A stretch of DNA of 51,004 bases, taken from NCBI GenBank assembly GCA_023662835.1, contig JAMPII010000011.1, forward strand, positions 1 through 51,004, given 5' to 3'. A program made the translations under genes and the position numbers. This document shows, piece after piece, positions 6,935-42,326 of the stretch. Position 1 is the first letter of the stretch, and each line of letters starts with the position of its first letter. The notes beneath the pieces were generated by a model. That model was not told where the DNA came from and did not search any database. It saw nothing but the letters and a program-made list of their open reading frames with translations. The DNA comes from Muribaculaceae bacterium (lineage in GTDB: Bacteria > Bacteroidota > Bacteroidia > Bacteroidales > Muribaculaceae).

Positions 6935-6936
6935 TT

Positions 6937-9345: not shown

Positions 9346-9371
9346 ATGAAACAGATTAACCTATTATAAAT

Positions 9372-12605: not shown

Positions 12606-12675
12606 AGCGAGTAATTAACAACCTCATTTGCTCCATTAATTGATGATTTGTGGAAATTGCAGCCAATCAATAGCG

Positions 12676-12743: not shown

Positions 12744-12756
12744 TTATCACAGCAAG

Positions 12757-13275: not shown

Positions 13276-13280
13276 ATAAA

Positions 13281-16157: not shown

Positions 16158-16176
16158 CACATAGATAAATTGCAAA

Positions 16177-16743: not shown

Positions 16744-16813
16744 GATAGCAAATCTATAGAGGAAAGTGGCCTACTGGGTTTTGAGCTAAGAATAATGATT
16801 CTGCAATAAAGGT

Positions 16814-18280: not shown

Positions 18281-18318
18281 TTACAAGCAACAAATGTCAG
18301 ATGAAAGTGAATGTTTGT

Positions 18319-25967: not shown

Positions 25968-26075
25968 AATATGAGTTTTTAATAAAATATTTGAAACTAG
26001 CCAGTGTCATTGCTGTACAAAATTTGAACGACATGACTATGTAACAGTAATGTTCTTAAGCCGCAGTTGAAGATA

Positions 26076-26510
26076 TTATTTGATTACCTTTACTTTTAAT
26101 ATAATACTGTCGTAACCGACAACCTTGACCGCTGTACCTGATTCTATCGATTCGCCGTTGTTACTTACAAATTGCCAGTTGTCGCCGTCAATTCTCAGCC
26201 TGCCCGGCCGTTTTTCCGCCGTATACGATTCTGTTACAACCGATTCGCGTCCTATCAAGGCGTCCATGTTTGAACTGTATTGGTTGCCCTTATGTAAATT
26301 CTTGTTAACCAACGGACCAAGAAAAATAAATGCTGCTACACCACCCAGAATCAATGCGATAAGCTGACCTTCCAAGCCTAATCCCAGTCCAGCGGTAACT
26401 GCCGCACATATAGCTCCAATAGCCGGACAAAAAGCGGCAAAGGCGCCAAATAAAAGCTCGACTGTAGCCAATACGGCGGCTATGATTAGCCAAATTAACC
26501 AAGATGCCAT
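26076..26510 (-). CDS. NfeD-family membrane protein
   Basis: 144 aa with hydrophobic segments at about residues 3-22, 25-45 and 50-70 and a soluble C-terminal OB-fold domain (about 80-143: DALIGRESVVTESY, RLRIDGDNWQ, GTAVKVVGYDSIILKVK). This is the short NfeD form without the ClpP-class protease domain. It is encoded just before the SPFH protein and probably works with it in membrane organisation. Confidence 0.9.
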   Translation of the reverse strand: MASWLIWLIIAAVLATVELLFGAFAAFCPAIGAICAAVTAGLGLGLEGQLIALILGGVAAFIFLGPLVNKNLHKGNQYSSNMDALIGRESVVTESYTAEKRPGRLRIDGDNWQFVSNNGESIESGTAVKVVGYDSIILKVKVIK

Positions 26511-26536
26511 AGTTGAATTCTTAAAGTTGATTTTTG

Positions 26537-26544
26537 CAAATATA
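26537..26544 (-). promoter_or_regulatory. -7 box of the nfeD-SPFH-hydrolase operon
   Basis: TATATTTG on the minus strand, an exact TAnnTTTG, 27 bp before the NfeD start. A TTTTC about 20 bp further upstream could be the -33 box. Confidence 0.55.
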
Positions 26545-26602
26545 AAAATCTTTCAGCTATTATGAAAATAATAGGTCGTTTTAAACGACATATTCTGGTT
26601 CC

Positions 26603-26650
26603 AAAAAAAACAAGACGATATGCCGGTTACGACATATCGCCCTGTTTTTT
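26603..26650 (-). terminator. Intrinsic terminator of alaS
   Basis: The minus-strand arms AAAACAGGGCGATATG and CATATCGTCTTGTTTT pair with two mismatches around a 10-nt loop, and an uninterrupted T-tract follows. It starts about 23 bp past the alaS stop. Confidence 0.85.
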
Positions 26651-26672
26651 CGGATTATAGCATTATTTAATA

Positions 26673-29297
26673 CTACATGTTAAGTAGCTGCTTCATCTTT
26701 TCAAAAGCTGTTGCGATAGCATCGGCGTTCTTTCCTCCGGCTTGTGCGAATCCGGGTTGACCACCACCACCACCATTAATCAGTTTGGCCGCTTCTCTAA
26801 CAGTTGCCGACGCGTTCATTCCTTCAGCAACCAGATCGTCGGTAAGCATTACAGTTAACAATGGCTTGCCTGAAGTGTCGGTTGTAGCCGCTATAAATGC
26901 TGTGTGTTCGGGCGATTTAGCACGAATTTTGAATGCTAAATTCTTGACAGCATCAGGTAGTCGCACACCGGTAAGCTCGACTACCGACACTCCTTTTATT
27001 GTACGCGCTTTGTTAAGAAGTTCGTCGGCAAGCATGTTGATTTTTTCTTGGAAATACTCTTCTGCTTGTTTTTTTAACTCTGAGTTTTCTTCAACGGCAT
27101 GTTTGAGTGCGTTAACCAGATTAGGTGCGTTGTTAAACATTCCGGCTATTTCGCGTAAAGTTGTTTGAAGACGTTCAACTTCAAGTTCGGCATTCAAGCC
27201 AGTGATAGCTTCAATCCTTCGTATTCCGGCCGCTACGCTGCTTTCTGAAATAATTTTGATCATACCGATGTTGCCGGTATTGGCAACGTGTGTTCCACCG
27301 CAAAGTTCCACCGATGAACCGTAACGGACAACACGTACGTCATCGCCATATTTTTCACCGAACAGTGCCATGGCGCCCATTTCGCGAGCCTCTGCAATAG
27401 GCATGTGGCGATGCTCGTCCAGAGCGATAGCCTGACGTACACGCGAATTGGCCAGATGCTCAACGGCCGAAATTTCCTCAAGTGTAAGTTTCTGGAAGTG
27501 AGAAAAGTCAAAGCGGAGAACTTCTGGCGACACAAATGAACCACGCTGTTCAACGTGTGTTCCCAGAACTTCGCGCAGAGCCTCGTGAATTAGGTGGGTT
27601 GCAGTATGGTTGCATGACGTTGCCATACGCAAGTTCCCGTCAACTGTAGCCTGAAATACGACATCAGGGTTTGCTGGAATGGTTTTTGTTAAATGAACAC
27701 TCATGCCGTTTTCCCGCTTTGTGTCATAAATCTCTGTAACTGAACCGTCGGGAGCTGTAAGAACGCCTCTGTCGCCAACTTGTCCACCCATTTCTCCGTA
27801 GAAAGGTGTGGCAGCAAGAACAATCTGGTAATATTCCTGCTTTTTCTGTTTAACTTTACGATAGCGCAATATTTTTGTTGCAACAGTCTGTTTGTCATAT
27901 CCAACAAACTCCTGTTCTCCTTCATTTAAAATAGTCCAGTCGTCGGTTTCAACAGCGGCAGCATTTCGTGCCCTGGCCTTTTGCTGGGCCATTTCCTGAT
28001 CGAACTGAGCGTGGTCCAGTGTCATACCGTTTTCCTTGAGAATCAGCTCGGTCAAGTCGAGAGGGAACCCGTAGGTATCGTATAGCACAAATGCTTCCTT
28101 ACCGGAAATTTCTGTAACATTCTTAGCTTTAGCAGCCGCGATTGCTCCATCGAGAAGTTTAATTCCGTTTTCAAGCGTACGCAGGAATGCATCTTCCTCT
28201 TCTTTAATCACTCTCATAATCAGCTCGCGCTGTTTCGGCAGCTCAGGATAGGCTTCGCCCATCGAGTCAATCAGGGTGTCAACAAGCTTATACATAAACG
28301 CTTGTTTCTGACCCAGGAAAGTGTATGCGTAGCGTACGGCTCTACGCAGTATTCGACGAATAACATAGCCTGCTTTAGCATTTCCAGGCAATTGCGCGTC
28401 GGCAATGGAGAATGATATTGTGCGCACGTGGTCGGCGATAACTCGCATTGCCACGTCAACTTTGTGGTCTTTATCATATTCAAGACCCGATAATTCAGCT
28501 ATTTTGCCGATCAAAGGAGTGAAAACGTCGGTGTCGTAGTTCGACTGTTTCCCTTGCATAGCCATACAAAGACGCTCAAAGCCCATGCCGGTATCGATAA
28601 CCTTAGCAGGCAATGGCTCCAATGAACCATCAGCTTTACGATTATATTGCATAAACACAAGATTCCAGATTTCGATAACCAGAGGATGATCGTGGTTAAC
28701 GAGCTCGCGACCCGGAATGGCGGCCTTCTCCTCCTCCGAACGCAAATCAATGTGTATTTCAGAGCAGGGACCACAAGGCCCAGTATCGCCCATCTCCCAG
28801 AAGTTGTCGTGCTTGTTGCCGTTAATAATATGGTCTTTAGGTAAGTGGTTCTCCCATATTTCGGCAGCCTCGTCGTCGCGGCTTAATCCTTCCGATTTAG
28901 AGCCTTCAAACACTGTTGCATATAAATTTTTAGGATCCAGCTTCAGAACGTCAACAAGGTATTCCCATGCCCAATCGATAGCTTCTTTTTTGAAATAGTC
29001 GCCAAACGACCAGTTGCCAAGCATCTCAAACATGGTGTGGTGGTATGTGTCCATACCAACTTCTTCCAAATCGTTATGTTTACCGCTGACACGCAAGCAT
29101 TTTTGCGAATCGGCTACACGACTGTATTTAGGCGCTACGTTACCCAGAATAATATCTTTAAACTGGTTCATTCCCGCGTTAGTGAACATCAACGTAGGAT
29201 CGTCTTTAATCACCATTGGTGCCGAAGGAACAATCTGATGTCCCTTATTTTTAAAGAACTCTTTATAAGATTCCCGGATTTGCTTTGCTGTAAGCAT
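26673..29297 (-). CDS. alaS: Alanyl-tRNA synthetase
   Basis: Charges tRNA-Ala with alanine. The 874-aa protein has the class II catalytic core at the N-terminus ([25 protein letters not shown], near residues 18-48), a tRNA-recognition domain, and an editing domain with zinc ligands in [11 protein letters not shown] and [10 protein letters not shown]. The C-terminal DHHA1 oligomerisation domain contains [15 protein letters not shown]. Length matches the family. It is transcribed alone, divergent from the GNAT gene, with its own promoter box and terminator. Confidence 0.96.
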
Positions 29298-29344
29298 AAT
29301 AGAAATTTAGGGGGTTGTTTTATTGTTTCTTGAATTACAATTTG

Positions 29345-29352
29345 CAAATTTA
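29345..29352 (-). promoter_or_regulatory. -7 box of alaS
   Basis: TAAATTTG on the minus strand fits TAnnTTTG, 48 bp before the alaS ATG. The -33 box is not clear. Confidence 0.55.
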
Positions 29353-29402
29353 CGAAAAAATTCATATATTCGTCCATCATAAAACCATTACATATTTTAA
29401 AA

Positions 29403-29945
29403 ATGATTTCTTTGCAGCAAATAACAACTTCGTCGCCATATTATTCTTCAGCCGAACAATTGTGGATGGAGGCGTTCCCAGAATATGAACGTCGCGAAAC
29501 AATGGCTCAACGACAAAACGTTGATTTCAACAGCAGATTTCATTTCATTCTGGTTGTCAATGGCGATGAACCTTGCGGGATGTTCACATACTGGGATTTT
29601 GACCGCTTTATTTATTGTGAGCATTTTGCAATATCACCCCTTGTCAGAGGTAAAGGCATAGGCGCAGAGGTACTGAAACAGATCCAGCAATCGGCTGCAA
29701 AACCGTTAGTGCTCGAAGTTGAATTACCCCACAACTACGACAGCAAGCGCAGAATACAATTTTATCAACGTAATGGATTCGTGCTGTGGGATAAAAGCAA
29801 GTATATTCAACCGCCATATAGGAAAACAGATAAACCGCTGTCGATGATGCTAATGTCGACTACCGGATTAAACGAACAATCCGATTTCGAAAAAGTGAAA
29901 AATACGATACATAAAAAAGTATATGAGAGCCATAAGAGCTTGTAA
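29403..29945 (+). CDS. GNAT-family N-acetyltransferase
   Basis: 180-aa acetyl-CoA-dependent acyltransferase. The GNAT core is seen as CEHFAISPLVRGKGIGAEVLKQI (beta-4/alpha-3 with the acetyl-CoA pyrophosphate loop RGKGIG, about residues 77-98) and RIQFYQRNGFVLWD (about 117-130). The N-terminal segment has EAFPEYERR, typical of one Bacteroidetes subgroup. The acceptor substrate cannot be told from sequence. It is divergent from alaS and stands alone. Confidence 0.85.
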   Translation: MISLQQITTSSPYYSSAEQLWMEAFPEYERRETMAQRQNVDFNSRFHFILVVNGDEPCGMFTYWDFDRFIYCEHFAISPLVRGKGIGAEVLKQIQQSAAKPLVLEVELPHNYDSKRRIQFYQRNGFVLWDKSKYIQPPYRKTDKPLSMMLMSTTGLNEQSDFEKVKNTIHKKVYESHKSL

Positions 29946-30000
29946 AAACAGCATTTCAATACGTTTGTAAAGTTTTTCCGGATTTTTTCATGCCATTTTG

Positions 30001-30030
30001 TTGTAAAATAAAAAAAAATAGTTACATTTG
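30001..30030 (+). promoter_or_regulatory. Promoter of the histone H1-like gene
   Basis: TTG (30001-30003), a 19-bp spacer and TACATTTG (30023-30030). The leader is about 140 nt and has no ORF, which is long for so small a gene. Confidence 0.7.
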
Positions 30031-30177
30031 TCGCATGTACAAAAAATAACAGCTAATTGTTGTAGTATTAATAACTTGCTAAAGAAACACTGGAGTGATT
30101 AACAGCAACAGAAATCGGCTGCTATTGAATGCTGAAAAGAATAAACCAAATATTACAACATTAATACCAAACTTACT

Positions 30178-30351
30178 ATGAACGAATTAGTAGCCAAAGT
30201 GGCTTCACTTTACGAAGCATTCCAAAAAGACGCTAACGCACAGGTTGAAAACGGCAATAAAGCAGCAGGTGCTCGTGCACGCAAAGTATCTCTCGAACTG
30301 GAAAAACTGCTTAAAGAATTCCGTAAAGCATCAATCGAGGCTGCAAAATAA
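30178..30351 (+). CDS. Histone H1-like DNA-binding protein (57 aa)
   Basis: Very small basic protein, MNELVAKVASLYEAF at the start and LLKEFRKASIEAAK at the end. The middle segment NGNKAAGARARKVSLELEKL is characteristic of the Hc1-like histone H1 homologues found throughout Bacteroidetes. It is predicted to be a helical hairpin and to bind DNA non-specifically as a nucleoid protein. It has its own strong promoter and a clean intrinsic terminator, which suggests abundant expression as a single-gene unit. Confidence 0.88.
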   Translation: MNELVAKVASLYEAFQKDANAQVENGNKAAGARARKVSLELEKLLKEFRKASIEAAK

Positions 30352-30372
30352 TTTTGCCTTCAAGTAATTACT

Positions 30373-30417
30373 AAGGCTGTAACCTGCATACATGTGGATT
30401 ACAGCCTTACTTTATTA
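30373..30417 (+). terminator. Intrinsic terminator of the histone-like gene
   Basis: AAGGCTGTAA (30373-30382) pairs perfectly with TTACAGCCTT (30399-30408) across a 16-nt loop, followed by ACTTTATTATT. Confidence 0.8.
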
Positions 30418-30441
30418 TTATAGCTTGTTTAAGTCAATGTA

Positions 30442-30473
30442 TTTGCGATGTTACCCGCTTATTAATATCTTTG
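30442..30473 (+). promoter_or_regulatory. Promoter of the patatin-AAA-FHA operon
   Basis: TTTG (30442-30445), a 20-bp spacer and TATCTTTG (30466-30473). The box ends only 4 bp before the patatin ATG, so the transcript would start at or next to the start codon. Confidence 0.65.
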
Positions 30474-30477
30474 TAAA

Positions 30478-31326
30478 ATGAAACGAGGATTTGTTTTGGA
30501 AGGCGGGGCTATGCGAGGCTTGTTTACGGCCGGAGTTCTCGATGAACTCACAAAGCAAAATATAACTCCCGATGGCATCGCCGGCGTGTCGGCCGGTGCA
30601 GCGTTCGGGTGTAATGTTAAATCACGTCAGCCGGGCCGCGTAATCCGATATAACAAACGGTTCGCTAATGACTCGCGCTACAGTGGTTTACTATCTTTTT
30701 TGAAAACCGGTAATATCTTCAACGCTGAATTCGCTTACCATCGTGTCCCGGAAGAATTTGATCTGTTCGACAATGAAACATTCCTCTCAAACCCAATGGA
30801 ATTTTACGCTGTTTGTACCGATGTCAGAACCGGCACCCCGGTTTACCACTTATGTGAAGAATCCGGGAACGAGTTTTATGAATGGATACGCGCATCGGCA
30901 TCAATGCCTCTTGTTTCAAAAATTGTAAACATAAACGGGCAGCTCCTGCTGGATGGCGGTCTCTCTGATTCCATTCCTCTTGAATTTATGCAAAACAAAG
31001 GTTACAAAAAAAATATTGTAGTTCTTACCCGCCCGGAATGGTACTTAAAAAAGCCGTCATCCCTTGGTCCGATAATAAGCACATATTATCATAAGTATCC
31101 AAATTTAGTTAACACGGCTCTTAATCGCCATGTAATGTATAACAAACAATTGGAATACATTCGTTTGTCGGAACAACAAGGAAGTTGTTTCGTTTTCCGT
31201 CCACCAACACCGCTCCCCATTGGCCATCTCTCCCACTCTCCTTCCGAGATGCAGAAAGTGTACGATATAGGAGTGGCTACAGCAAAAAAATTAATGCCGG
31301 TTCTAGAACAATGGTGGAACTTATAA
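30478..31326 (+). CDS. Patatin-like phospholipase
   Basis: 282-aa lipid acyl hydrolase of the patatin/RssA-YjjU type. The Ser-Asp dyad is visible as Ser38 in GVSAG (36-40) and Asp159 in LLDGG. An oxyanion glycine run lies in LEGGAMRG (residues 7-14). There is no signal peptide, so it acts in the cytoplasm or on the inner membrane face. It starts at the ATG directly after the promoter box and is followed by a four-AAA+ protein after 25 bp, with which it is probably co-transcribed. Patatin lipases serve in lipid turnover and as effectors of some antiphage systems; which applies here is open. Confidence 0.88.
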   Translation: MKRGFVLEGGAMRGLFTAGVLDELTKQNITPDGIAGVSAGAAFGCNVKSRQPGRVIRYNKRFANDSRYSGLLSFLKTGNIFNAEFAYHRVPEEFDLFDNETFLSNPMEFYAVCTDVRTGTPVYHLCEESGNEFYEWIRASASMPLVSKIVNINGQLLLDGGLSDSIPLEFMQNKGYKKNIVVLTRPEWYLKKPSSLGPIISTYYHKYPNLVNTALNRHVMYNKQLEYIRLSEQQGSCFVFRPPTPLPIGHLSHSPSEMQKVYDIGVATAKKLMPVLEQWWNL

Positions 31327-31351
31327 TAAATTAGAAATCAAGTAAGAAAAT

Positions 31352-34300
31352 ATGAAATGTCCCCAATGTAAGCGCGACAATCGCGAGATAGCCAAATTTT
31401 GTATGTGGTGTGGCGAACCAATTGTTTCGCACTCATCGACAAGCAGCGAAAGGCAAATTCTCGAAGAGTTTGTTGAAAAAGACGACGTTGTTGCCGAACT
31501 TTCTCAACTAACATCCAGAGCCAAAGCTGCAATACGAGCAGGAAGGCGAATGAATTTGAGCTTTGTTGTGACCGGAAGTGTGGGAACTGGCAAGAACTTT
31601 GTTGCCGAAGGCATTACAAAACTGCTTTACAGTGCCGGACTAGTTCGCACATCCAAACCGGAAATTGTTGGACCGCTCGACTTTGAGGAGTTTATCAACA
31701 ATTCAAATGCCAAAGCACAAAATTTGAAAAATACGGTTGTCGTTTTCGACGAAGCCCATAAACTGATACCATCATATAATTCAAATTCAATTTGTCAACT
31801 CGACTATATTATTGATTTGATTAACAATTGGAACGGAAAAGCCGACAAACCTATTATCGTAATACTTGGCAATCAGAAATTAGACGATTATTTCAGAGAT
31901 CATCCCGAGACTTCCGCCTTGGTTGGCTATCGTTTTAAATTGTCAACGCTGTCACTCGATGGCTTGGTTAAAATTGCCTTGCAACAGCTAAGGCTCAAAT
32001 ACCATTGCGAACTCACTTCGCAAGCCGCCCAAAAACTACGTCGTATATTCGCAAACGATCTGCGCTCGCCCGACGATGCGCTTGGTGTTCAGGGCCATGA
32101 TGCAGCCAAACGAGCCTACCAAATCAGCTTGGCTGCCCTGACAGCAAAAGTAGGAAATTCGCCCATTGGTCCGTCGCTCATAAAAGGAAAGGAGTTTGAG
32201 ATAAAAACGCTTGATCAGATAATGGCGGAGTTCGACAAATATGTAGGTGTAGACGAAGTAAAAGCTGCCGTAAAGTCGGTTGCTCATGCTGTTGAGCAAG
32301 CCCGAAAAGCTGGTAAAGAATATAAATTAACCGACCATTATCAGTTCCTAGGTAATCCCGGTACGGGTAAGACAACCATGGCACGCTTGTTTGCCCAGGC
32401 ATTAAATGCCTTGGGCGTGTTGCCCACAGGACAATTAGTTGAGGTTAGCCGAACCGATCTTGTTGCGGTTTACGTTGGTGAAACCGCGAAACAAGTTACA
32501 AAAAAATTTGATGAGGCAATGGGCGGAGTCCTTTTTCTGGATGAAGCTTATTCCTTGGTAACTGCTAAAAACGACTCCTTTGGGCAAGAAGCCGTTAACA
32601 CCCTACTCCATCTGGCGGAAAACCGTCGAGGAAAATTAGTTGTCATTTTAGCCGGCTATACTAAAGAAATGGGCGATTTCATGAAAGTGAACTCCGGTTT
32701 GGCATCCCGTTTCAACCGTATAGTGAATTTCCGCGATTATACAGGCCCGGAACTAGCTGAAATTTTCAAAAGAATGGTTGCGCAAAATAGCGAGGGATAT
32801 CGGCTGGCTCCCAACATGGACAACGACATTCGTGCTTTCTTCGACAAAATATATCTGACGCGCCAGCGCGATTTCGGAAATGCCCGCGAAGTGCGCAACG
32901 CATATTCGGCAGCGTGTGGCCGCGTGACCGACCGTTTGGCTGCTGCGCCTAATTCAGGTGCTCACATTACGGCAGCCGACCTCGATCCGGATTTGCAAAC
33001 ACAATCCAATATGAGTGTCGATGAAGCTCTTGCCGAGCTCAACTCCTTCATCGGAATGGAGTCGGTTAAAGAACAACTCCGTTCGCTTGCAAACAGAATC
33101 AGAATAGACCGTATACGCGCTCAACGTGGCGGAAATATGGTTCAACCAAATGTACATGTCGCAATCACAGGCAATCCAGGAACAGGCAAAACGGAAGTAG
33201 CCAAGAAATTGGGCGCTATTTTAAAAGCCATAGGTTATTTGCCAAAAGGACATGTTGTTGAACGCGAACGAAAAACATTGCTCGATTCGTATGCAAACTC
33301 CGCCGGTCAAAATATGGAAAAAGCTGTCGACGAGGCTATGGGAGGTGTGCTGTTTATCGACGAGGCATATAATCTGATATCGTCGGAAACTCCCGGCGAA
33401 AAAGATAAAGATGGCAAAGTTGCCGTTGAGGCTCTAATGACACGAATGACTAACGATGCCGGTAAATTCGTCACCGTAATAGCCGGATATAAAGAACCTA
33501 TCGAAGAGTTCATCAATAACGCCAATCCCGGTTTGGCTCGACGTTTTTCATACCGTATTCACATCCCCGATTATACAGCATCACAGCTTTTTGATATATT
33601 CATGCAAAAAGCAACGAAAGAAAAATTGCAGCTAACCGACACTGCCAAAACTCGCCTAATGCAGAAAATCGACCAAATGGTTAAAATGAAGGATAAGAAT
33701 TTTGGCAATGCAGGCGAAATGGTAAAGCTGCTCGATGAGGTAAAGAACCGGCAAGGAGAGCGTCTGGCAGCGGGAGATATCTCAAAATTGTCCGACGGAC
33801 AATTGTACACAATAAGAGTTGTCGACATACCATTCGATGAAACCAAATCCGTGAACCTAGAACAATGTATGGCTCAATTAGATGCTCTTGTTGGTTTGGA
33901 GTCGGTGAAAAACGCGGTTAGAGAACTAGCCGACACAATAGTGATTGAGCAACAGCGAGGAAATAAAAATGGCGTAACCCCCGACCACTATCTGTTCTTA
34001 GGTAACCCTGGAACGGGTAAAACAACCGTAGCAAGAATAATCGGTAATATCCTTCATACACTCGGGCTGCTACCGTCGCCAAAAGTTGTAGAAGTTGTGA
34101 AAACCGACCTTGTTGCTTCATATGTAGGCCAGACAGCTCCCAAAACACGACAGATGATCGACCGCGCTCTTGGTGGCGTACTGTTCATTGACGAAGCATA
34201 TACTCTCGACGATGGGCAGTTTGGCACACAAGACTGTATGCCCGAACTACTCACCAAACTAATCGACTACAAGGGTCGAATGGTTTGTGTAGCAGCCGGC

Positions 34301-34654
34301 TATCCTCGCGAAATGCAGAAATGGCTTAATTCAAACTCAGGTTTGACCTCGCGTTTCACCCGTGTAATAAACTTCGAGGATTATTCTGCCGACGAACTCG
34401 CTCAGATTTTCCGCAAAAAAGTTGAAGCCGAAAATATGCGCCTTGAGCCGGAGGCCGACCGTACAATGCAAAACTATTTCAGGCAATTAACCGCAAACAA
34501 AAGCATTAATTTTGCAAATGCTCGCGAAGCCGCGAACTATTTCGACCGTGTGAAGTTAAACCAAGGAAGGCGGTTGCGTAACGAAATCAACAATCCATCG
34601 TTCAACAGAGAGCAACTTTATATTATCAAACAACAAGATATGATTATTCAATGA
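31352..34654 (+). CDS. Zinc-ribbon protein with four AAA+ modules (CbxX/SpoVK-like)
   Basis: 1100-aa cytoplasmic ATPase. Residues 1-25 form a zinc ribbon (Cys3, Cys6, Cys17, Cys20). AAA1 (about 67-265) has GSVGTGKN at 75-82 and VVFDEAH at 130-136. The other three are CbxX/CfxQ-type: AAA2 with GNPGTGKT at 334-341 and VLFLDEA at 393-399; AAA3 with GNPGTGKT at 607-614 and VLFIDEA at 666-672; AAA4 with GNPGTGKT at 884-891 and VLFIDEA at 943-949. Pore-loop YVGET and YVGQT occur in AAA2 and AAA4, but AAA3 has YANSA. AAA1 has Asn where Ser/Thr should bind magnesium, so it may not hydrolyse ATP. Relatives (CbbX, EccA, SpoVK) remodel protein complexes. Its stop overlaps the start of a zinc-ribbon/FHA gene. 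The target is unknown. Confidence 0.9.
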   Translation: MKCPQCKRDNREIAKFCMWCGEPIVSHSSTSSERQILEEFVEKDDVVAELSQLTSRAKAAIRAGRRMNLSFVVTGSVGTGKNFVAEGITKLLYSAGLVRTSKPEIVGPLDFEEFINNSNAKAQNLKNTVVVFDEAHKLIPSYNSNSICQLDYIIDLINNWNGKADKPIIVILGNQKLDDYFRDHPETSALVGYRFKLSTLSLDGLVKIALQQLRLKYHCELTSQAAQKLRRIFANDLRSPDDALGVQGHDAAKRAYQISLAALTAKVGNSPIGPSLIKGKEFEIKTLDQIMAEFDKYVGVDEVKAAVKSVAHAVEQARKAGKEYKLTDHYQFLGNPGTGKTTMARLFAQALNALGVLPTGQLVEVSRTDLVAVYVGETAKQVTKKFDEAMGGVLFLDEAYSLVTAKNDSFGQEAVNTLLHLAENRRGKLVVILAGYTKEMGDFMKVNSGLASRFNRIVNFRDYTGPELAEIFKRMVAQNSEGYRLAPNMDNDIRAFFDKIYLTRQRDFGNAREVRNAYSAACGRVTDRLAAAPNSGAHITAADLDPDLQTQSNMSVDEALAELNSFIGMESVKEQLRSLANRIRIDRIRAQRGGNMVQPNVHVAITGNPGTGKTEVAKKLGAILKAIGYLPKGHVVERERKTLLDSYANSAGQNMEKAVDEAMGGVLFIDEAYNLISSETPGEKDKDGKVAVEALMTRMTNDAGKFVTVIAGYKEPIEEFINNANPGLARRFSYRIHIPDYTASQLFDIFMQKATKEKLQLTDTAKTRLMQKIDQMVKMKDKNFGNAGEMVKLLDEVKNRQGERLAAGDISKLSDGQLYTIRVVDIPFDETKSVNLEQCMAQLDALVGLESVKNAVRELADTIVIEQQRGNKNGVTPDHYLFLGNPGTGKTTVARIIGNILHTLGLLPSPKVVEVVKTDLVASYVGQTAPKTRQMIDRALGGVLFIDEAYTLDDGQFGTQDCMPELLTKLIDYKGRMVCVAAGYPREMQKWLNSNSGLTSRFTRVINFEDYSADELAQIFRKKVEAENMRLEPEADRTMQNYFRQLTANKSINFANAREAANYFDRVKLNQGRRLRNEINNPSFNREQLYIIKQQDMIIQ

Positions 34655-35112
34655 TGAAGTGCCCGTATTGTAATTCAGAAATCGATAATCGCAGCCTATA
34701 TTGCGACCAGTGCGGAACAAAACTACAAGCCAACAATGTAGCTTCCAATTCTGCCGAAGAAACCATATGGGAGATTGATGATTTGTTGTCCGACGAATAT
34801 TCATATCCAAAAGAGAATCTGCCACAAGCACCTACACGGCTTGTCTGCAGCAAATATGGAATGGAAATAAGACTGCGCGACAATGCCGTGATTGGACGCA
34901 CCACGGGCGATTATGTTGGAGTTTTTGGCAAATGTAACTATATCTCAAGTACACATGCCATACTCAAACGAACCTCAAAAGGCTGGAGTATAACCGACAT
35001 GGGTTCTACTAACGGTACAACCGTAAACGGCGTTAAATGCCGCCCCACCCTGAACTTCGGTATGGGTGACAAAGTTTGCTTAGCTGTTTATTACGAGTTT
35101 GTAGCTAAATAA
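34651..35112 (+). CDS. Zinc-ribbon/FHA-domain protein
   Basis: 153-aa protein with an N-terminal zinc ribbon (Cys4, Cys7, Cys18, Cys21) much like that of the upstream AAA+ protein, an acidic linker (about 35-55) and an FHA domain (about 62-152). The FHA shows the phosphothreonine-binding pattern IGR (Arg83), SSTHA (99-103) and GSTNGT (118-123). FHA domains recognise phosphothreonine, so a Ser/Thr kinase elsewhere is implied. It overlaps the AAA+ stop by ATGA; the second ATG (34654) is an equally good start. Coupled translation suggests a complex of the two. Confidence 0.9.
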   Translation: MMKCPYCNSEIDNRSLYCDQCGTKLQANNVASNSAEETIWEIDDLLSDEYSYPKENLPQAPTRLVCSKYGMEIRLRDNAVIGRTTGDYVGVFGKCNYISSTHAILKRTSKGWSITDMGSTNGTTVNGVKCRPTLNFGMGDKVCLAVYYEFVAK

Positions 35113-35131
35113 TTGGTTTAAACCTGTTAAT

Positions 35132-36088
35132 ATGAAAAACTCAAAAAAAAAACACACCGACGAAAAACAAGCAATTCATGTAGCTAATCATGTTACATGG
35201 GTTGGCTTTTGGTGGAATATACTTTTAGGTATAGCAAAAGTTGCCGGCGGTATTATAGGACGCTCTGGAGCCCTTGTTGCCGACGGTATACATTCGCTAT
35301 CCGACGTTTTTACCGATGTCGTAATATTGGTTATGGTTGGAATTGCCAGAAAAAAACCTGACAAAAAATACCAGTATGGGCACGGAAAATATGAAACTTT
35401 TGCCACCATGCTTTTGGCCGTAATACTTGCAATTGTTGCCATCGGTATATTTGGGGAGGCTGTGCAACGGATAATAGATGCTTCCCATGGAATTCTGCCC
35501 CCTCGCCCCGGCATGATAGCACTGGTGCTTTGTACTGCTTCAATCGTTGTCAAGGAATGGTTATATCATTACACATTATCGGCCGGCCGAAAAATTAATT
35601 CCGGTGCCATAATAGCAAATGCGTGGCATCATCGCAGCGACGCTTTTTCGTCGGTTGCAACATTGTTGGGAGTGTCCGGAGCAATGTTCCTTGGACCGCA
35701 TTGGCGCATACTGGATCCAATCGCTGCCATTATAGTTGCTATTTTCATTGTAATTATATCAGTAAAAATAGCAATTCCTGCCGTTAAAGAATTGTTGGAA
35801 ATAGCCTTACCAAAGGAAATGGAAAACGAAATTCGCCAGATAACTGCTTCCACCCCCGGCGTTATCACCTACCATCACCTGCGCACACGCCGTAACGGAA
35901 ACACAATAATAATCGACATGCATATTAAAGTGCGCCCCGACATTCTGGTTGTAACCGCCCATAACATATCATCAAACGTCGAGAATCGTATCGACCGAAG
36001 ATATGGAAAAAACAACACGATTGTAACCATACATATCGAGCCATACGAAGGAGAAAAGATTCGTCGCGACGGAAGCTGTGCCGAATGA
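35132..36088 (+). CDS. Cation diffusion facilitator (CDF) family transporter
   Basis: 318-aa membrane protein exporting divalent metal (Zn, Mn or Fe). Six membrane segments occupy residues 20-215 and a cytoplasmic ferredoxin-like domain follows (about 230-310, with ITYHHLRTRRNGNTIIIDMHI). Metal-site residues are in DGIHSLSDVFTD (segment 2) and AWHHRSDAFSS (segment 5, the HxxxD pair). It starts 19 bp after the FHA gene on the same strand and has no promoter of its own that I can see. Co-transcription is likely but may be incidental. It converges on dnaG with a 15-bp gap. Confidence 0.92.
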   Translation: MKNSKKKHTDEKQAIHVANHVTWVGFWWNILLGIAKVAGGIIGRSGALVADGIHSLSDVFTDVVILVMVGIARKKPDKKYQYGHGKYETFATMLLAVILAIVAIGIFGEAVQRIIDASHGILPPRPGMIALVLCTASIVVKEWLYHYTLSAGRKINSGAIIANAWHHRSDAFSSVATLLGVSGAMFLGPHWRILDPIAAIIVAIFIVIISVKIAIPAVKELLEIALPKEMENEIRQITASTPGVITYHHLRTRRNGNTIIIDMHIKVRPDILVVTAHNISSNVENRIDRRYGKNNTIVTIHIEPYEGEKIRRDGSCAE

Positions 36089-36103
36089 AATTGGCCGCTT
36101 AAA

Positions 36104-38350
36104 CTATTTCCTGCTGAAAATTCTGTCGCCCAAATATTTTGCTAGCTCCGAACGCAGCGATGATATTTGTTGCTGTTGGGTTATTATCTGATTAACAGCA
36201 TCCGATTTTTCCAAATCAGTCATACTGCTGTCGGCAACGATATTTTTAAGGTCGTTGCGCAACGAACGGTCGCGGCAAGTCAATATCGCATCCTTCAATG
36301 CAAAAATTGCCCGTGGAACCAGTTCCTCCAAACGGTCGATGTCAGTTTCAATTTTTGCAAATTTTGTATGCATCTTGCTCAGTACATGTTTCTCCGGAAC
36401 AAGTTCGAGCGCCAGATTTCTTATTTGAGAATCAGCATCCGAGCACAACGCCTTTTCAATATATGCCTGTGCATATTCTGATTGCCATCGGGCATAGTTT
36501 TCGTCGGCCTGTGAGTAGAGCTGCTGTTGCTTCCGATCCAAATCGGCCAAATCGGTAAGTGACTCTCTGATTTCAGCCTCACCTTTGACTATAAATTCAG
36601 CTCGTTTTCGCAGCAATACCTCTTCATTATTTTTATAGTCCGACTTCCATTGATTTTCCGACAAAGCTTTTGCCGATGCAAACGCTTTAGCAACACCGCT
36701 GTCGCTGAACTTAATATCATCATATTGCATCTCTTGAGCAACATAATCGATCACATTAATCGTTAGCGTATTGCCTTGTTCATCAACCTCATCACACAAA
36801 TCAACCATACCATACCGAAGCACCAGCTGAAGCAAGTTCTTTTCATAAGCAAGCAAAAAGGCGGCATCGGAATTATCGGCCTTTTTAACCGATCTCTCAA
36901 TAATTTCCGATACCTGCGGTATGTCTGTGTCTTGTTTATTATCATTAGCTTCATCGACTTCAATAACCTCGGCTTGAACATTGCCGCCGTTTTTTAACGA
37001 ATCGCGTGCTTCCTGTTGCTTGCGCCGCATACTTTCCTTTTCAGCAATGTCGGCTCGCTGCTTTTTCACCTCCAGGCGAATAACCCCCTCATTGATATCT
37101 AGCATCCGGCTACATTCTGTAATGTAAAGGTTCGTACTTACAGGATTTGGTATCGCGGCAATTGAACGAACTATATCAGTAATTGCGCGCGCCCGCGCCA
37201 TTGGGTCGTTCTCAACCCCTTTGAGCAGAATATCGGTTTTAAATTTAATGAAGTCAGTCTCGTGTGTGCGAATATATTCTTCTAACTCCGACGCTGATCG
37301 GCTTTGCGCGAACGAATCAGGGTCGTGACCGTCGGGCAAAAGCAGAACTTTAATGTTTAAACCCTCAGCTAGCAACATATCTATACCGCGCAGTGAGGCT
37401 TTTATACCGGCGGCATCACCGTCGTATATCACTGTCACATTTTCAGCAAATCGGTGGATAAGTCTTATCTGTCCTTCAGTGAGAGATGTGCCCGACGAGG
37501 CAACAACATTTTCCACTCCGCTCTGATGCATGGAAATGACATCCATGTATCCTTCAACAAGGATACACTTATTCATTTTTGCGATAGCCGATTTTGCCTG
37601 GTAAATACCATAAAGTTCATTCGACTTTGAGTATATTACCGATTCTGGCGAATTCACATATTTAGCAACATCTTTTTTCAGTGTTCTGCCACCGAATGCA
37701 ATAGTTTTGCCCGAAAGCGAGAATACAGGATATATCACCCTACCCTTAAATCGGTCATATATACGCCCGTTATCAGTTTTTACACAAAGCCCGGCTGTCA
37801 CCAGATTTTCCTCTTTAAACCCCTTTTCTATAGCCGCATTGAAAAGCTCAGTGCTTTTCTCCGATGCATAACCCAGCCGGAACTTCTTAATGGAGGCATC
37901 GCTCAAACCGCGCTCCCGGAAATAACTCAAACCGATTTCCCGGCCGTCGTCAGTATTAAACAGATTGTGCTCAAAATGCCTAAGCGCAAAATCGTTCACG
38001 GCAAGCAAACTCGCACGCTGACTTTCACGCTCTTTTTCCTGCGAGGTCATCTCGTGCTCCTTGATTTCGATGCCGTATTTCTTAGCCAGATAGCGCAGAG
38101 CCTCCTGATAGGTCATATGTTCATGCTCCATGATGAAGTTTACCGGACTACCCCCCTTTCCACAACTGAAGCATTTACATATATTTTTCGCTTTTGATAC
38201 CGAGAACGATGGTGTCCGCTCATTATGGAACGGGCAAAGACCCAGGTAGCTGGTCCCCCTGCGCTTTAAACTTACGAAATCACTCACAACCTCAACTATG
38301 TCGGCTGTGTCAAGAATTCGCTGTACAGTTTCGCGATCAATCGTTTTCAA
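36104..38350 (-). CDS. dnaG: DNA primase
   Basis: Synthesises RNA primers at the replication fork. The zinc finger CPFHNERTPSFSVSKAKNICKCFSCG lies near residues 40-65. The TOPRIM domain has KCILVEGYMDV and IYDGDAAGIKASLRG, and a long helical C-terminal region for DnaB contact follows. The start is taken as the TTG at 38350 (LKTIDRETV), giving 748 aa. An AAGGAGG sits 8 nt upstream, and a TAACTTTG promoter box covers the alternative TTG at 38374. Another TTG at 38356 is possible. No ATG is available near the conserved N-terminus. Confidence 0.93.
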   Translation of the reverse strand: MKTIDRETVQRILDTADIVEVVSDFVSLKRRGTSYLGLCPFHNERTPSFSVSKAKNICKCFSCGKGGSPVNFIMEHEHMTYQEALRYLAKKYGIEIKEHEMTSQEKERESQRASLLAVNDFALRHFEHNLFNTDDGREIGLSYFRERGLSDASIKKFRLGYASEKSTELFNAAIEKGFKEENLVTAGLCVKTDNGRIYDRFKGRVIYPVFSLSGKTIAFGGRTLKKDVAKYVNSPESVIYSKSNELYGIYQAKSAIAKMNKCILVEGYMDVISMHQSGVENVVASSGTSLTEGQIRLIHRFAENVTVIYDGDAAGIKASLRGIDMLLAEGLNIKVLLLPDGHDPDSFAQSRSASELEEYIRTHETDFIKFKTDILLKGVENDPMARARAITDIVRSIAAIPNPVSTNLYITECSRMLDINEGVIRLEVKKQRADIAEKESMRRKQQEARDSLKNGGNVQAEVIEVDEANDNKQDTDIPQVSEIIERSVKKADNSDAAFLLAYEKNLLQLVLRYGMVDLCDEVDEQGNTLTINVIDYVAQEMQYDDIKFSDSGVAKAFASAKALSENQWKSDYKNNEEVLLRKRAEFIVKGEAEIRESLTDLADLDRKQQQLYSQADENYARWQSEYAQAYIEKALCSDADSQIRNLALELVPEKHVLSKMHTKFAKIETDIDRLEELVPRAIFALKDAILTCRDRSLRNDLKNIVADSSMTDLEKSDAVNQIITQQQQISSLRSELAKYLGDRIFSRK

Positions 38351-38358
38351 TATCAATA

Positions 38359-38379
38359 CCTCCTTATTATGCAAAGTTA
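38359..38379 (-). promoter_or_regulatory. Promoter box and Shine-Dalgarno of dnaG
   Basis: On the minus strand TAACTTTG (38379-38372) is followed by AAGGAGG (38365-38359), 8 nt before the TTG start at 38350. A strong Shine-Dalgarno sequence is unusual in this phylum and helps decide the start. Confidence 0.6.
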
Positions 38380-38555
38380 AGAAATAAAATATACACAGTA
38401 TAATAACACGACCGAAAATAGAAATGTCCCTGTCATAATAAAAGCATTTTCACAAACCTAAAATGACGAACCGTTATGAAATGGGCTATAATCTCCGATA
38501 GGAATTAGGAAAGAAATATTAAACTAAAAGAAGGATGATAATCGTTTTTTTTGTG

Positions 38556-38563
38556 TATTTTTG
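38556..38563 (+). promoter_or_regulatory. -7 promoter box of pepT
   Basis: TATTTTTG fits TAnnTTTG and lies 32 bp before the pepT ATG. The -33 box is not distinct in the preceding T-rich stretch. Confidence 0.5.
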
Positions 38564-38595
38564 CAATATATTAATCACATAAAACTAATTGCACC

Positions 38596-39813
38596 ATGAA
38601 TTTAGTTGACAGATTCCTGCAATATGTAAAATACGACACCCAGAGCGACGAATTGACAAATCTATGGCCCTCAACACCCGGACAAATGATTTTCGCTCAA
38701 TATCTGGAGTCGGAGTTGCAAAAGCTCGGTTTAACCGAAATTTCGCTTGACGAAAATGGCTATCTTATGGCCACACTGCCGGCAAATACCGACAAGCCAG
38801 TTCCAACAATCGGTTTTATAGCCCACCTCGATACATCTCCCGATATCTCGGGCCGTCATGTATCGCCTCGCATTGTCACTGCTTATGAAGGCGGCGATAT
38901 TGTTCTGAATGCAGAAAAAGATATAAAACTTTCGCCCCGCGAATTTCCCGAATTAGACCATTACATCGGCCAAGATTTGATTGTCACCGACGGAAACACA
39001 CTTCTCGGTGCCGACGACAAAGCCGGCATTGCAGAAATAATTTCAGCCGTCGACTATCTGATAAAGCATCCCGAAATCAAACATGGAAAAGTCCGCATCG
39101 CATTCAATCCCGACGAAGAAATTGGCCAAGGAGCTCACAAATTCGATGTAGCTAAATTCGGTTGCGACTGGGCCTACACAATGGATGGCGGCGAAATTGG
39201 CGAACTCGAATTCGAAAACTTCAATGCCGCAGTCGCTAAAGTAACATTCACAGGTCGAAATGTGCATCCCGGCTACGCAAAACATAAGCTTATAAACTCA
39301 ATGCGAATAGCCAATCAGTTTATGGGGATGTTGCCCCGTTGGGAAACCCCCGAACACACCGAAGGCTACGAAGGATTCTATCACCTTGTCGGCATTCAAG
39401 GCGATGTAGAGAAAACGATTATAACATATATAATACGCGATCACGACCGCGACCGTTTCGAGCGCCGCAAAAAAGAACTCGAACATCTGGTGCGCAAATT
39501 CAACAACGAATTCCCCAACAGTACAGCTATTGAAATTAAGGACCAATACTATAATATGCGCGAAAAAATTGAACCAGTAATGCACATTATTGATACAGCC
39601 GAGCAGGCAATGCGCAATGTGGGAGTAACACCCCATGTGGTTCCTATTCGCGGAGGAACAGACGGAGCGCAACTATCGTTCAAAGGTCTCCCCTGCCCCA
39701 ATATCTTCGCCGGTGGGTTAAACTTCCATGGCCGATACGAATTCATCCCCATTCCATCAATGCAAAAAGCGATGGAGGTTATTGTTGAAATAATCCGTCT
39801 TGTAGCTAAATAA
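38596..39813 (+). CDS. pepT: Peptidase T (tripeptidase)
   Basis: Cytoplasmic zinc aminopeptidase of the M20B family that removes the N-terminal residue from tripeptides. The 405-aa protein has the metal ligands in [11 protein letters not shown] (His77, Asp79), [24 protein letters not shown] and [11 protein letters not shown]. The C-terminal [22 protein letters not shown] is also typical. Length is standard. miaA follows after 1 bp. Confidence 0.95.
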
Positions 39814-39814
39814 A

Positions 39815-40729
39815 GTGCACGACACCCCCCTTTTAATAGTTGTTACCGGAGCAACAGCTTCCGGCAAAACGGATTTGGCAATAGAATTGGCCGAAAATTA
39901 TGGATGTGACATAATTTCGGCCGATTCACGCCAGATTTTCAAAGGCATCCCTATAGGAACAGCCGCCCCTACACAGGAACAATTAGCCCGTGTGAACCAC
40001 CATTTTGTTGCCCAACTTGAACTCGATCAATATTATAGTGCGGCATGTTTCGAAAGAGATGTCCTAAAATTGCTGCCCGATTTGTTTCAAAAAAGCGATG
40101 TTCAAATTATGTGCGGTGGCTCAATGATGTATGTCGATGCCATTGTTAATGGCATCGACGATTTGCCTACAATAACTCCGCAAGTACGAGAATATGTAGC
40201 CAATGTTTTCCAAAACGACGGCTTGGCAGGATTACGTATGCTGCTGAAAAATCTCGATCCGGATTATCTCGATAAAGTTGACATAGCCAATCCACGCAGA
40301 CTAATCCACGCTATCGAAGTGTCAATACAGTCCGGAAAGCCATACTCATCATTATGCACCGGCAAAAAGAAAGAACGTCCATTCCGCATAGTGCAATTCG
40401 CGATTGCACATGAGCGAGAAACACTCTTCAGCCGTATAAATCATCGCACGCAAATGATGATCAACGCCGGTTTAGTAGATGAAGCTAAATCAGTGTTCCA
40501 TTTACGCCACCTGAATTCGCTTAATACAGTTGGCTACAAAGAGATGTTTGCATATTTCGACGGCACATTCACCCTCAGTCAGGCCACCGACCGTATGGCA
40601 AAAAACTCACGCGTCTACGCAAAAAAACAATTAACTTGGATCAAACGCAACGATAACATAATCTGGTTGTCCCCCGACAATCCTTACAACGAAGCTCTAA
40701 AGGCCCTGCAATTTTATGAAATGCCATAA
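39815..40729 (+). CDS. miaA: tRNA dimethylallyltransferase
   Basis: Adds an isopentenyl group to A37 of tRNAs that read UNN codons. The 304-aa protein has the P-loop GATASGKT at residues 12-19, ISADSRQIFKG, GGSMMYVDAI and the C-terminal KNSRVYAKKQLTWIKR. The start is a GTG one base past the pepT stop, so pepT and miaA are translationally linked. A compact terminator follows. Confidence 0.95.
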   Translation: MHDTPLLIVVTGATASGKTDLAIELAENYGCDIISADSRQIFKGIPIGTAAPTQEQLARVNHHFVAQLELDQYYSAACFERDVLKLLPDLFQKSDVQIMCGGSMMYVDAIVNGIDDLPTITPQVREYVANVFQNDGLAGLRMLLKNLDPDYLDKVDIANPRRLIHAIEVSIQSGKPYSSLCTGKKKERPFRIVQFAIAHERETLFSRINHRTQMMINAGLVDEAKSVFHLRHLNSLNTVGYKEMFAYFDGTFTLSQATDRMAKNSRVYAKKQLTWIKRNDNIIWLSPDNPYNEALKALQFYEMP

Positions 40730-40745
40730 ATAAAATACACTGAGT

Positions 40746-40768
40746 AAGCATAGAATATGCTTTTTTTT
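40746..40768 (+). terminator. Intrinsic terminator of pepT-miaA
   Basis: AAGCATA (40746-40752) pairs with TATGCTT (40756-40762) across a 3-nt loop, and a run of eight T overlaps its end. The next promoter box lies within 10 bp. Confidence 0.8.
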
Positions 40769-40770
40769 GT

Positions 40771-40778
40771 TACTTTTG
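40771..40778 (+). promoter_or_regulatory. -7 promoter box of gpmI
   Basis: TACTTTTG fits TAnnTTTG and lies 33 bp before the ATG at 40812. It immediately follows the miaA terminator. Confidence 0.6.
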
Positions 40779-40811
40779 CACCCATAAAAACAATTGGAAA
40801 ATTTCAAGAAT

Positions 40812-42326
40812 ATGGCACAGAAAGCTCTTCTTATGATTCTAGATGGCTGGGGTATAGGAAACCACAGTAAAGGTGATGTAATTTTTAACACACCAACCCC
40901 TTATTGGGATTATCTGACATCAACATATCCTAACTCTCAGCTTCAAGCCAGCGGCGAAAACGTTGGTTTGCCCGACGGACAAATGGGTAACTCCGAGGTT
41001 GGTCACCTCAATATCGGTGCCGGCCGCGTTGTTTATCAGGATCTTGTTAAAATTAACAAGGCTATCCGCGAAGGATCAATTAAAAACAATCCCGAAATCA
41101 TCAACGCATTCTCATACGCTAAAAATTCAGGTAAAGCAATCCACTTTATGGGTCTTACCTCTGATGGCGGTGTGCATTCATCGCTCGACCATCTTTACGC
41201 TTTGTGCAACATAGCTAAAGAATATGGCCTTGAAGATGTTAATATCCATTGCTTCATGGATGGCCGTGACACCGACCCCCGCTCCGGAAAAGGTTTCATT
41301 GAAGCCCTTACCGACCATTGCACAAAATCGGCCGGACGCATAGCTTCAATTGTTGGACGTTACTATGCGATGGATCGCGATAAACGTTGGGAACGCGTAA
41401 AAGAAGCATACGATCTATTAGTAAAAGGCGAAGGCACCAAAGCCACCAACATGGTCGAAGCCGTCCAGAAATCCTACGACGAAGGAGTTACCGACGAATT
41501 CATCAAACCCATAGTCAATGCCAACTTCAACGGAACAATTAAAGAAGGAGATGCTGTTATTTTCTTCAACTACCGCAACGACCGAGCAAAAGAACTTACA
41601 ACAGTGCTCACACAGCACGACATGCCGGAAGCCGGAATGACGACAATACCCAATCTGCAATACTACTGCATGACTCCTTACGATGCCTCATTCACCGGCG
41701 TACACATTCTGTTCCCCAAAGAAAACGTTGTCAACACATTAGGCGAATACCTGTCGGCACAAGGCAAAAAACAACTTCATATTGCCGAAACCGAAAAATA
41801 CGCTCATGTCACATTCTTCTTCAATGGTGGCCGTGAACAACCATACAAGGGAGAGGAACGAATCCTTATAGCTTCGCCAAAAGTCGCAACCTACGACCTG
41901 AAGCCCGAAATGAGCGCTTTCGAAGTCCGCGACAAACTTGTTGAGGCCATACGTTCCGAAGAATTCGATTTTATTGTAGTCAACTACGCCAATGGCGATA
42001 TGGTAGGCCACACCGGCGTTTACGAAGCAATAGAAAAAGCAGTGGTTGCAGTCGACCAGTGTGTTCGTGACACAATCGAAGCCGCAAAAGTTGCCGGCTA
42101 CGAAGCAATAATCATCGCCGACCATGGTAACGCCGACAATGCTGTAAACCCCGATGGAAGCGCCAACACCGCCCACTCGCTTAACCCCGTTCCATGTATC
42201 TACGTAACAAACCGCAAAAATGCAGTAGTACGTCCGGGCCGCCTGGCAGATGTTGCACCAACAATGCTTAAAATAATGGGATTGCCACAGCCAAAAGAAA
42301 TGACAGGTGAGGCTCTCATCGACTGA
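40812..42326 (+). CDS. gpmI: 2,3-bisphosphoglycerate-independent phosphoglycerate mutase
   Basis: Interconverts 3- and 2-phosphoglycerate in glycolysis, using two manganese ions. The start is the ATG at 40812 ([14 protein letters not shown]), giving 504 aa; a TTG six codons upstream is unlikely. The catalytic serine lies in [14 protein letters not shown]. Metal ligands are in [15 protein letters not shown] and IIADHGNAD. Length is normal. It stands alone between two terminators. Confidence 0.96.

What the first reader, a model, noticed from the sequence alone, without database searches (positions are those of the whole stretch)
30478..36088. Patatin lipase, four-AAA+ ATPase and FHA protein in one compact operon
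A patatin-like hydrolase, a 1100-aa protein with four AAA+ modules and a zinc ribbon, and a zinc-ribbon/FHA protein are packed with gaps of 25 bp and an ATGA overlap, with a CDF transporter 19 bp later. I know of no named system with this composition. CbxX-type AAA+ proteins remodel complexes (CbbX, EccA) and FHA domains read phosphothreonine. A lipase controlled by a phospho-dependent remodeller, in metal signalling, envelope stress or defence, is a testable idea. The sequence shows gene order and domains only; the shared function is inference.
Basis: partly seen in the sequence, partly recalled or inferred. Interest (0 to 1): 0.75.

Follow-up and report, generated by a model that had tools for sequence, protein, structure and literature searches.

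The report
Kinase-less remnant of phospho-signalling cassette
A gut bacterium keeps a paired protein-remodelling motor and phosphothreonine reader that in its relatives belong to a fixed five-gene unit with its own kinase and phosphatase; here that kinase and phosphatase are gone, and the neighbouring lipase and metal-pump genes are probably incidental.

Summary
Relatives change what they are. The zinc-ribbon tandem-AAA+ and zinc-ribbon FHA proteins are two members of a conserved Bacteroidota unit: multi-zinc-ribbon protein, Ser/Thr kinase with hydrophobic segments, tandem AAA+ (3 to 6 modules), FHA, PP2C, in that order on one strand. In family Muribaculaceae 26 of 397 genomes have this FHA protein; AAA+ lies upstream in 25 and PP2C follows in 24. 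The two without PP2C are the window and Muribaculum caecicola, sisters nested among full cassettes, with a patatin in the kinase's place and a CDF in PP2C's. Patatin and CDF orthologues of other Muribaculum lie elsewhere, so they look like neighbours. Intact motifs and low dN suggest that AAA+ and FHA still work, perhaps reading phosphothreonine made by an unlinked kinase; one candidate kinase is found only in these two of 14 Muribaculum genomes, which kinship alone could explain. Nine of ten paper searches sought the unit and listed no description of it. No structure was predicted and nothing biochemical was tested.

The parts
30442..30473 (+). candidate promoter TTTG-N20-TATCTTTG, 5 bp before the patatin ATG (near-leaderless start)
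   Evidence: 11 matches in the window versus 1.83 expected; the consensus itself is recalled from Bacteroides work
30478..31326 (+). patatin-like hydrolase with DUF6363, Ser38/Asp159; probably a neighbour rather than a system component
   Evidence: a patatin C-terminus (57 aa, 44% identical) also precedes AAA+ in M. caecicola at the contig end; orthologues elsewhere in 5 other Muribaculum
31352..34654 (+). zinc-ribbon plus four tandem CbxX-type AAA+ modules (Walker A at about 31574, 32351, 33170, 34001)
   Evidence: best solved relatives CbbX 3zuh/3syk and EccA1 9lur
34651..35112 (+). single zinc ribbon plus FHA domain; G82 R83 S99 H102 N121 G122 N126 present
   Evidence: second zinc ribbon of most relatives missing
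35132..36088 (+). CDF cation-efflux transporter, last gene of the run; probably a neighbour
   Evidence: also follows FHA in M. caecicola, elsewhere in 10 other Muribaculum

Best explanation
The AAA+ and FHA genes are the remodeller and reader modules of a Bacteroidota phospho-signalling cassette (multi-zinc-ribbon protein, Ser/Thr kinase, tandem AAA+, FHA, PP2C) that lost its kinase, phosphatase and multi-zinc-ribbon genes in an ancestor of the window species and Muribaculum caecicola and now lies between a patatin and a CDF gene. Working model of the full cassette (inferred): the membrane kinase phosphorylates threonines, including repeats of its own tail; the FHA protein binds them and brings the tandem AAA+ motor, perhaps through zinc-ribbon contacts, to the phosphorylated complex, which it remodels with ATP; PP2C resets the state. 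In the window lineage reader and motor persist and probably take their phosphothreonine signal from another kinase, the best candidate being the kinase/PP2C/FHA cluster on contig C15. Patatin and CDF are co-transcribed neighbours. Shown: gene content, order, distribution, relationship of the AAA+ proteins, motifs, conservation. Inferred: membrane location, all binding, phosphorylation, remodelling, the trans kinase.
For: Order: kinase upstream of AAA+ in 20 of 20 family loci where it can be seen (window and M. caecicola apart), multi-zinc-ribbon gene before the kinase in 17 of 17 with room, PP2C after FHA in 24 of 26; all five genes in 7 genomes outside the family and two more cut by contig ends (families f22, f28, f59, f135, f153, the two cut loci in f4 and f135). 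AAA+ tree of 27 rows: window and M. caecicola together 100/100, inside an 8-row group (100/99) whose other 6 are full cassettes. No cassette kinase in G000 or G001. The commonest Thr-containing 4-mer of the kinase tail beats shuffles at p<0.01 in 16 of 22 tails. 23 of 23 kinases scanned have 3 or more hydrophobic segments. The C15-type kinase is at E 1e-60 in G000 and G001 only, of 14 Muribaculum.
Against: No experiment and no structure (nine attempts, machine busy). G1087 has FHA-PP2C beside a CHAT/TPR gene without AAA+ at the locus; G170, one of 20 AAA+ genomes, has kinase, PP2C and zinc-ribbon genes but no Pfam FHA. 6 of 22 kinase tails miss p<0.01, three having no repeated 4-mer; the repeat test was devised after seeing the tails, and tails were cut by hand-set rules. 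The tree is midpoint-rooted; the nesting fails if the root lies on the branch to the two species. The C15 co-occurrence is in two sister genomes, and only 9 of the 14 are at least 90% complete with low contamination. Absence of the kinase rests on draft genomes (95.5 and 98% complete). Loss in place cannot be told from transfer of AAA-FHA alone.
Confidence: 0.6

Rival explanations
1. One reading: the patatin is the client or effector of the AAA-FHA pair, a lipase switched by a phospho-dependent remodeller.
For: Patatin is the first gene behind the promoter match, 25 bp from AAA+; the order patatin-AAA-FHA-CDF also holds in M. caecicola, although AAA+ is 75%, FHA 66% and CDF 72% identical. Catalytic motifs are intact.
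Against: Never upstream of the pair in the 28 of 33 other loci where the upstream gene can be seen. The patatin occurs in 5 of 12 other Muribaculum without the pair. The M. caecicola fragment, 57 residues, is only 44% identical, far less conserved than AAA+, and the rest of that gene is off the contig.
Confidence: 0.15
2. The pair is a decaying leftover without function.
For: Kinase, PP2C and multi-zinc-ribbon genes and the second FHA zinc ribbon are gone; the N-terminal part of AAA+ changes twice as fast as the rest.
Against: All four Walker A motifs intact, FHA residues conserved among relatives kept, FHA dN/dS 0.11 and AAA+ dN close to that of dnaG, genes still overlapping in both species.
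Confidence: 0.07
3. The cassette is an anti-phage or conflict system and the window carries a variant whose patatin is the toxic effector.
For: Patchy distribution (26 of 397 family genomes; 5 of 393 order and 7 of 395 phylum genomes with the window counted). Cassette kinases of relatives match PADLOC kinase models, PD-T4-6 over up to about 80% of one model and mad6. Patatins, AAA+ proteins and kinases serve in known defence systems (recalled).
Against: The PADLOC kinase matches cover the kinase domain and fit any such kinase; window proteins match IetA, TRIP13 and an effector phospholipase only in part, and NCBIfam's anti-phage ATPase model far below its cut-off. No AAA+ near the 6 viral FHA loci; one multi-zinc-ribbon protein had no match in plasmids. 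Defence-gene neighbours were not searched for.
Confidence: 0.12

Closest known systems
ArnA-ArnB archaellum regulatory module of Sulfolobus (ArnA = zinc finger plus FHA)
   Same: The FHA-protein profile matches 5a8i (named ArnA, E 6.4e-11) and 8s05_C (named Conserved protein, E 6.7e-11) across zinc finger and FHA, profile positions 4-159 (the best match by E-value is 1uht, FHA only). ArnA works with Hanks-type kinases and a phosphatase (passages of PMC6509490; abstract starts of PMC7472852 and PMC5300886).
   Different: ArnA's partner is a vWA protein, not an AAA+ array; no kinase-AAA-FHA-PP2C operon is known to me there; archaeal.
GarA / OdhI FHA regulators of Actinobacteria
   Same: Profile matches GarA and OdhI structures over the FHA part; both are regulated by Hanks kinases (recalled).
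   Different: GarA and OdhI carry an N-terminal phospho-site and inhibit 2-oxoglutarate dehydrogenase (recalled); no zinc ribbon, no AAA+.
T6SS threonine-phosphorylation pathway PpkA-PppA-Fha
   Same: Hanks kinase, PP2C phosphatase and FHA protein as one switch (recalled; abstract start of PMC3953482).
   Different: Tied to T6SS genes; none was recognised in the listings of neighbours, which were not annotated systematically.
CbbX / EccA / SpoVK (CbxX-type AAA+)
   Same: The whole protein, four modules summed, scores above the NCBIfam cut-offs of SpoVK, EccA and CbbX; best PDB matches are CbbX and EccA1.
   Different: Those have one CbxX module (recalled); here 3 to 6 in one chain with an N-terminal zinc ribbon.
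vWA-MoxR / GAP1-N2 conflict systems (PMC7159879)
   Different: Built around GTPase or vWA components; CbbX has no occurrence in the text and the passages seen show no FHA-tandem-AAA pair (12 of 21 places shown).

Membership tests
Bacteroidota ZRP-STPK-AAA-FHA-PP2C cassette (defined here) | zinc-ribbon tandem-AAA+ followed on the same strand by zinc-ribbon FHA | tested here: met
Bacteroidota ZRP-STPK-AAA-FHA-PP2C cassette (defined here) | Ser/Thr kinase upstream of AAA+ | tested here: not met
   patatin upstream; the profile of cassette kinases finds only weak matches on C15 and C58
Bacteroidota ZRP-STPK-AAA-FHA-PP2C cassette (defined here) | PP2C downstream of FHA | tested here: not met
   CDF downstream
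Bacteroidota ZRP-STPK-AAA-FHA-PP2C cassette (defined here) | common ancestry of the AAA+ with cassette members | tested here: met
   within an 8-row group at 100/99, midpoint root
CbxX-type AAA+ | AAA plus AAA_lid_6 modules with Walker A and B motifs | tested here: met
CbbX (rubisco activase) | rubisco operon context | tested here: inconclusive
   no rubisco gene recognised among ORFs of 26000-41000 (by eye); the genome was not searched for it
EccA / type VII secretion | esx/ecc gene neighbours | tested here: inconclusive
   none recognised by eye; neighbours not annotated systematically
FHA phosphothreonine reader | GR, S..H and NG..N residues | tested here: met
FHA phosphothreonine reader | binding of a phosphothreonine peptide | not testable with these tools
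   needs a binding assay
Patatin-like phospholipase (DUF6363 type) | Patatin plus DUF6363 with Ser and Asp motifs | tested here: met
   activity untested
Known anti-phage system (PADLOC) | a window protein matching a defence model over most of its length | tested here: not met
   best stretches are partial; relatives' kinases do cover most of one PD-T4-6 kinase model

The most novel reading that the evidence does not exclude
Probability: 0.3. Interest if true: 0.7.

Novelty: new variant of a known kind. Interest (0 to 1): 0.5.

Why it matters
Kinase-phosphatase-FHA switches are known, but a fixed operon that adds a tandem, single-chain CbxX-type AAA+ motor and shared zinc ribbons is, as far as my searches of one open library reached, not described, though it occurs in several families of Bacteroidota. 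It offers a defined set of proteins in which to ask how a bacterial kinase directs an AAA+ remodeller. The window lineage is a natural experiment: reader and motor kept, kinase and phosphatase lost.

Tried and rejected
Patatin-AAA-FHA as a conserved triad: not seen outside two sister species. CDF as a system part (metal signalling): same ground. Known defence system: window proteins match PADLOC models only in part. Phage or plasmid carriage: the FHA profile found 6 viral loci, none with AAA+ in the DNA held; AAA+ matches in 204 plasmid and 11 phage records are all below 60% identity and were not examined for the cassette; one multi-zinc-ribbon protein had no plasmid match. A named-genome scan with the AAA+ protein gave one relative; patterns from one sequence find close relatives only. 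YN00 failed on all pairs and NG86 dS was saturated or undefined for patatin, AAA+ and dnaG. A first anchor for kinase tails missed 7 of 23 and was replaced by an alignment anchor. Weaker FHA hits in the family that I fetched belong to other kinase/PP2C/FHA clusters or to lone FHA or zinc-ribbon genes; G306 and G779 were other FHA proteins; G465 and G615 were not examined. Structure prediction was never accepted, so no fold search was run.
Full report
OBSERVATION. The four genes are real, at the stated coordinates, on one strand with a 25-bp gap, a 4-bp overlap and a 19-bp gap. Pfam gives Patatin plus DUF6363, four AAA stretches with three of AAA_lid_6, zinc ribbon plus FHA, and a CDF transporter. 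All four AAA modules have Walker A motifs. The FHA keeps the residues invariant in the alignment of 18 rows, such as G82 R83 S99 D116 S119 G122 N126, with H102 nearly so. One promoter-like match lies 5 bp before the patatin start, and none between the genes on this strand.

WHERE IT IS. Its contig starts inside the C-terminus of a patatin, followed by AAA+, FHA, CDF and dnaG in the window's order. The patatin fragment is 44% identical over 57 codons, against 75% for AAA+, 66% for FHA, 72% for CDF and 78% for dnaG.

THE FULL CASSETTE. In family Muribaculaceae the FHA profile (E 1e-15 or better) is found in 26 of 397 genomes; an earlier single-sequence search gave 28 of 297 at E 1e-3, other FHA proteins included. 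Besides the window I fetched all 25 other loci and scanned them with profiles of the five components and of the window's patatin and CDF. AAA+ lies upstream on the same strand in 25 of 26 (in G293 the FHA gene is split over two contig ends; in G247 one gene intervenes); the exception, G1087, has a CHAT/TPR gene there. PP2C follows FHA in 24 of 26, all but the window and M. caecicola (in G284 it is cut by the contig end). A Ser/Thr kinase lies upstream of AAA+ in 20 of 20 loci where it can be seen; the other six are the window and M. caecicola (patatin), G1087 (no AAA+), and G229, G230, G1083 (contig ends). A multi-zinc-ribbon protein lies upstream of the kinase in 17 of 17 with room; G277, G284 and G1080 end too early. 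In several loci one further gene lies within the cassette (for example L049, L050, L085). Outside the family, searches of 393 genomes of the order and 395 of the phylum at E 1e-12 gave 8 matching genomes each, window included; over both, 9 genomes other than the window carry the pair: 7 have all five genes and 2 (G594, G749) are cut. Two matches were other FHA proteins (G306, G779) and two were not inspected (G465, G615).

From the AAA+ side, 20 of 297 family genomes have a match at E 1e-80; 19 also have the FHA protein. The twentieth, G170, has PP2C, kinase, two zinc-ribbon proteins and a 1839-aa tandem AAA+ but no Pfam FHA; its neighbours look Bacillota-like to my eye, so the contig may be a contaminant. 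It hints that tandem AAA+ with kinase and PP2C is wider than Bacteroidota.

ANCESTRY OF THE WINDOW FORM. A tree of 27 AAA+ proteins puts the window and M. caecicola together (100/100) within a group (100/99) whose other six members are full cassettes. The root is the midpoint; only a root on the branch to these two would undo the nesting. The simplest reading is loss of the multi-zinc-ribbon, kinase and PP2C genes; transfer of AAA-FHA alone is not excluded. The two FHA proteins have four cysteines in the first 60 residues, as has G230, where the 24 others have seven to nine (27 rows), so the second zinc ribbon is missing too. A profile of cassette kinases finds only weak kinase matches in G000 and G001. 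The genomes are 95.5% and 98% complete, so absence is likely but not certain.

MECHANISM. Cassette kinases have an N-terminal tail before the kinase core with repeated Thr units (for example TGTAIPSG, DKTLKPD, KTIRP, STGRASGRG, PTSVPGA). In 16 of 22 tails the commonest Thr-containing 4-mer exceeds residue shuffles at p<0.01; three have none repeated. I devised that test after seeing the tails, and it covers 22 of the 27 kinases found (one is cut; the four were left out). The same kinases and the cut one, 23 of 23, have three or more hydrophobic segments, so a membrane kinase is likely. In several cassettes the FHA protein's own linker carries a similar Thr unit (judged by eye, no control, and in others it is not evident). 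This fits FHA docking on the autophosphorylated kinase, perhaps with self-binding of the linker as in GarA and OdhI (recalled). AAA+, FHA and the multi-zinc-ribbon protein all have zinc ribbons, which I take as contact points (inference). By Walker A count the AAA+ has 3 to 6 modules across the 27 rows (2 in G261 and G269, which are as long as the 3-module forms). CbbX acts as a ring on rubisco (recalled), so remodelling of a phosphorylated complex is the likely output.

WHAT DRIVES IT IN THE WINDOW. The genome has two other FHA proteins, a PP2C and a kinase in one cluster on C15 with a caspase-like peptidase, and two further kinase matches on C58 and C66. Of 14 Muribaculum genomes only G000 and G001 have the C15 kinase at E 1e-60 (73% identical), with PP2C beside it in both. 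These are the two with AAA-FHA. They are the closest pair by the CDF comparison, and five of the 14 genomes are below 90% complete or above 5% contamination, so this is a lead and not a test.

PATATIN AND CDF. Patatin orthologues (52 to 62% identity) occur in 5 other Muribaculum and CDF orthologues in 10 others; the flanks fetched, 1.5 kb or to the contig end, show no AAA+, FHA or dnaG, and no CDF beside patatin. In the 28 of 33 other loci where the gene upstream can be seen it is not this patatin. Yet both genes keep their places in two diverged species, so a local tie in this lineage is possible.

LITERATURE. Nine sought the cassette or its parts; sought ArnA. Judged from the listings (20 of 76 papers shown) none describes the unit. 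I saw passages of PMC7159879 and PMC6509490 and read no paper in full.

VERDICT. The AAA-FHA half of the finding is a real and, as far as I could search, undescribed unit, better understood as a kinase-less derivative of a five-gene phospho-signalling cassette. The lipase and transporter are probably neighbours. Interest 0.5.

Noticed in passing
window 30178-30351 (+): 57-aa histone H1-like Hc1 protein (PF07432, E 1.1e-22) just upstream of the unit, with a promoter-like match at 29997-30030.
   Followed up: partly
window 30442-30478: Promoter match ends 5 bp before the patatin ATG, which would imply a leaderless or nearly leaderless mRNA.
   Followed up: no
window, whole: TTTG-N18..22-TANNTTTG occurs 11 times against 1.83 expected, so it probably marks promoters in this genome.
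   Followed up: partly
L057 (G000:C15) 7551-13448: Second phospho-signalling cluster: kinase, PP2C, two FHA proteins, a caspase-like peptidase C14 and a LytTR-like short protein (the last by eye); its kinase is in only 2 of 14 Muribaculum genomes at E 1e-60.
   Followed up: partly
L187 (G1087:C26) 4843-10701: FHA-PP2C pair without AAA+, next to a 1515-aa TPR-CHAT protein.
   Followed up: partly
L156 (G170:C61) 7330-19677: PP2C, kinase, unknown protein, zinc-ribbon protein, 1839-aa tandem AAA+ and zinc-ribbon protein in a Bacillota-looking contig: a possible cousin of the cassette outside Bacteroidota.
   Followed up: partly
L085 14930-15574, L050 10519-11349, L041 9823-11028: Variable genes follow PP2C in full cassettes: a DUF1963 protein, a Sel1-repeat protein and a GNAT-domain protein.
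   Followed up: no
AAA+ proteins of G247 and G176 versus G749: Number of tandem AAA+ modules varies from 3 (about 850 aa) to 6 (about 1680 aa) at the same position of the cassette.
   Followed up: partly
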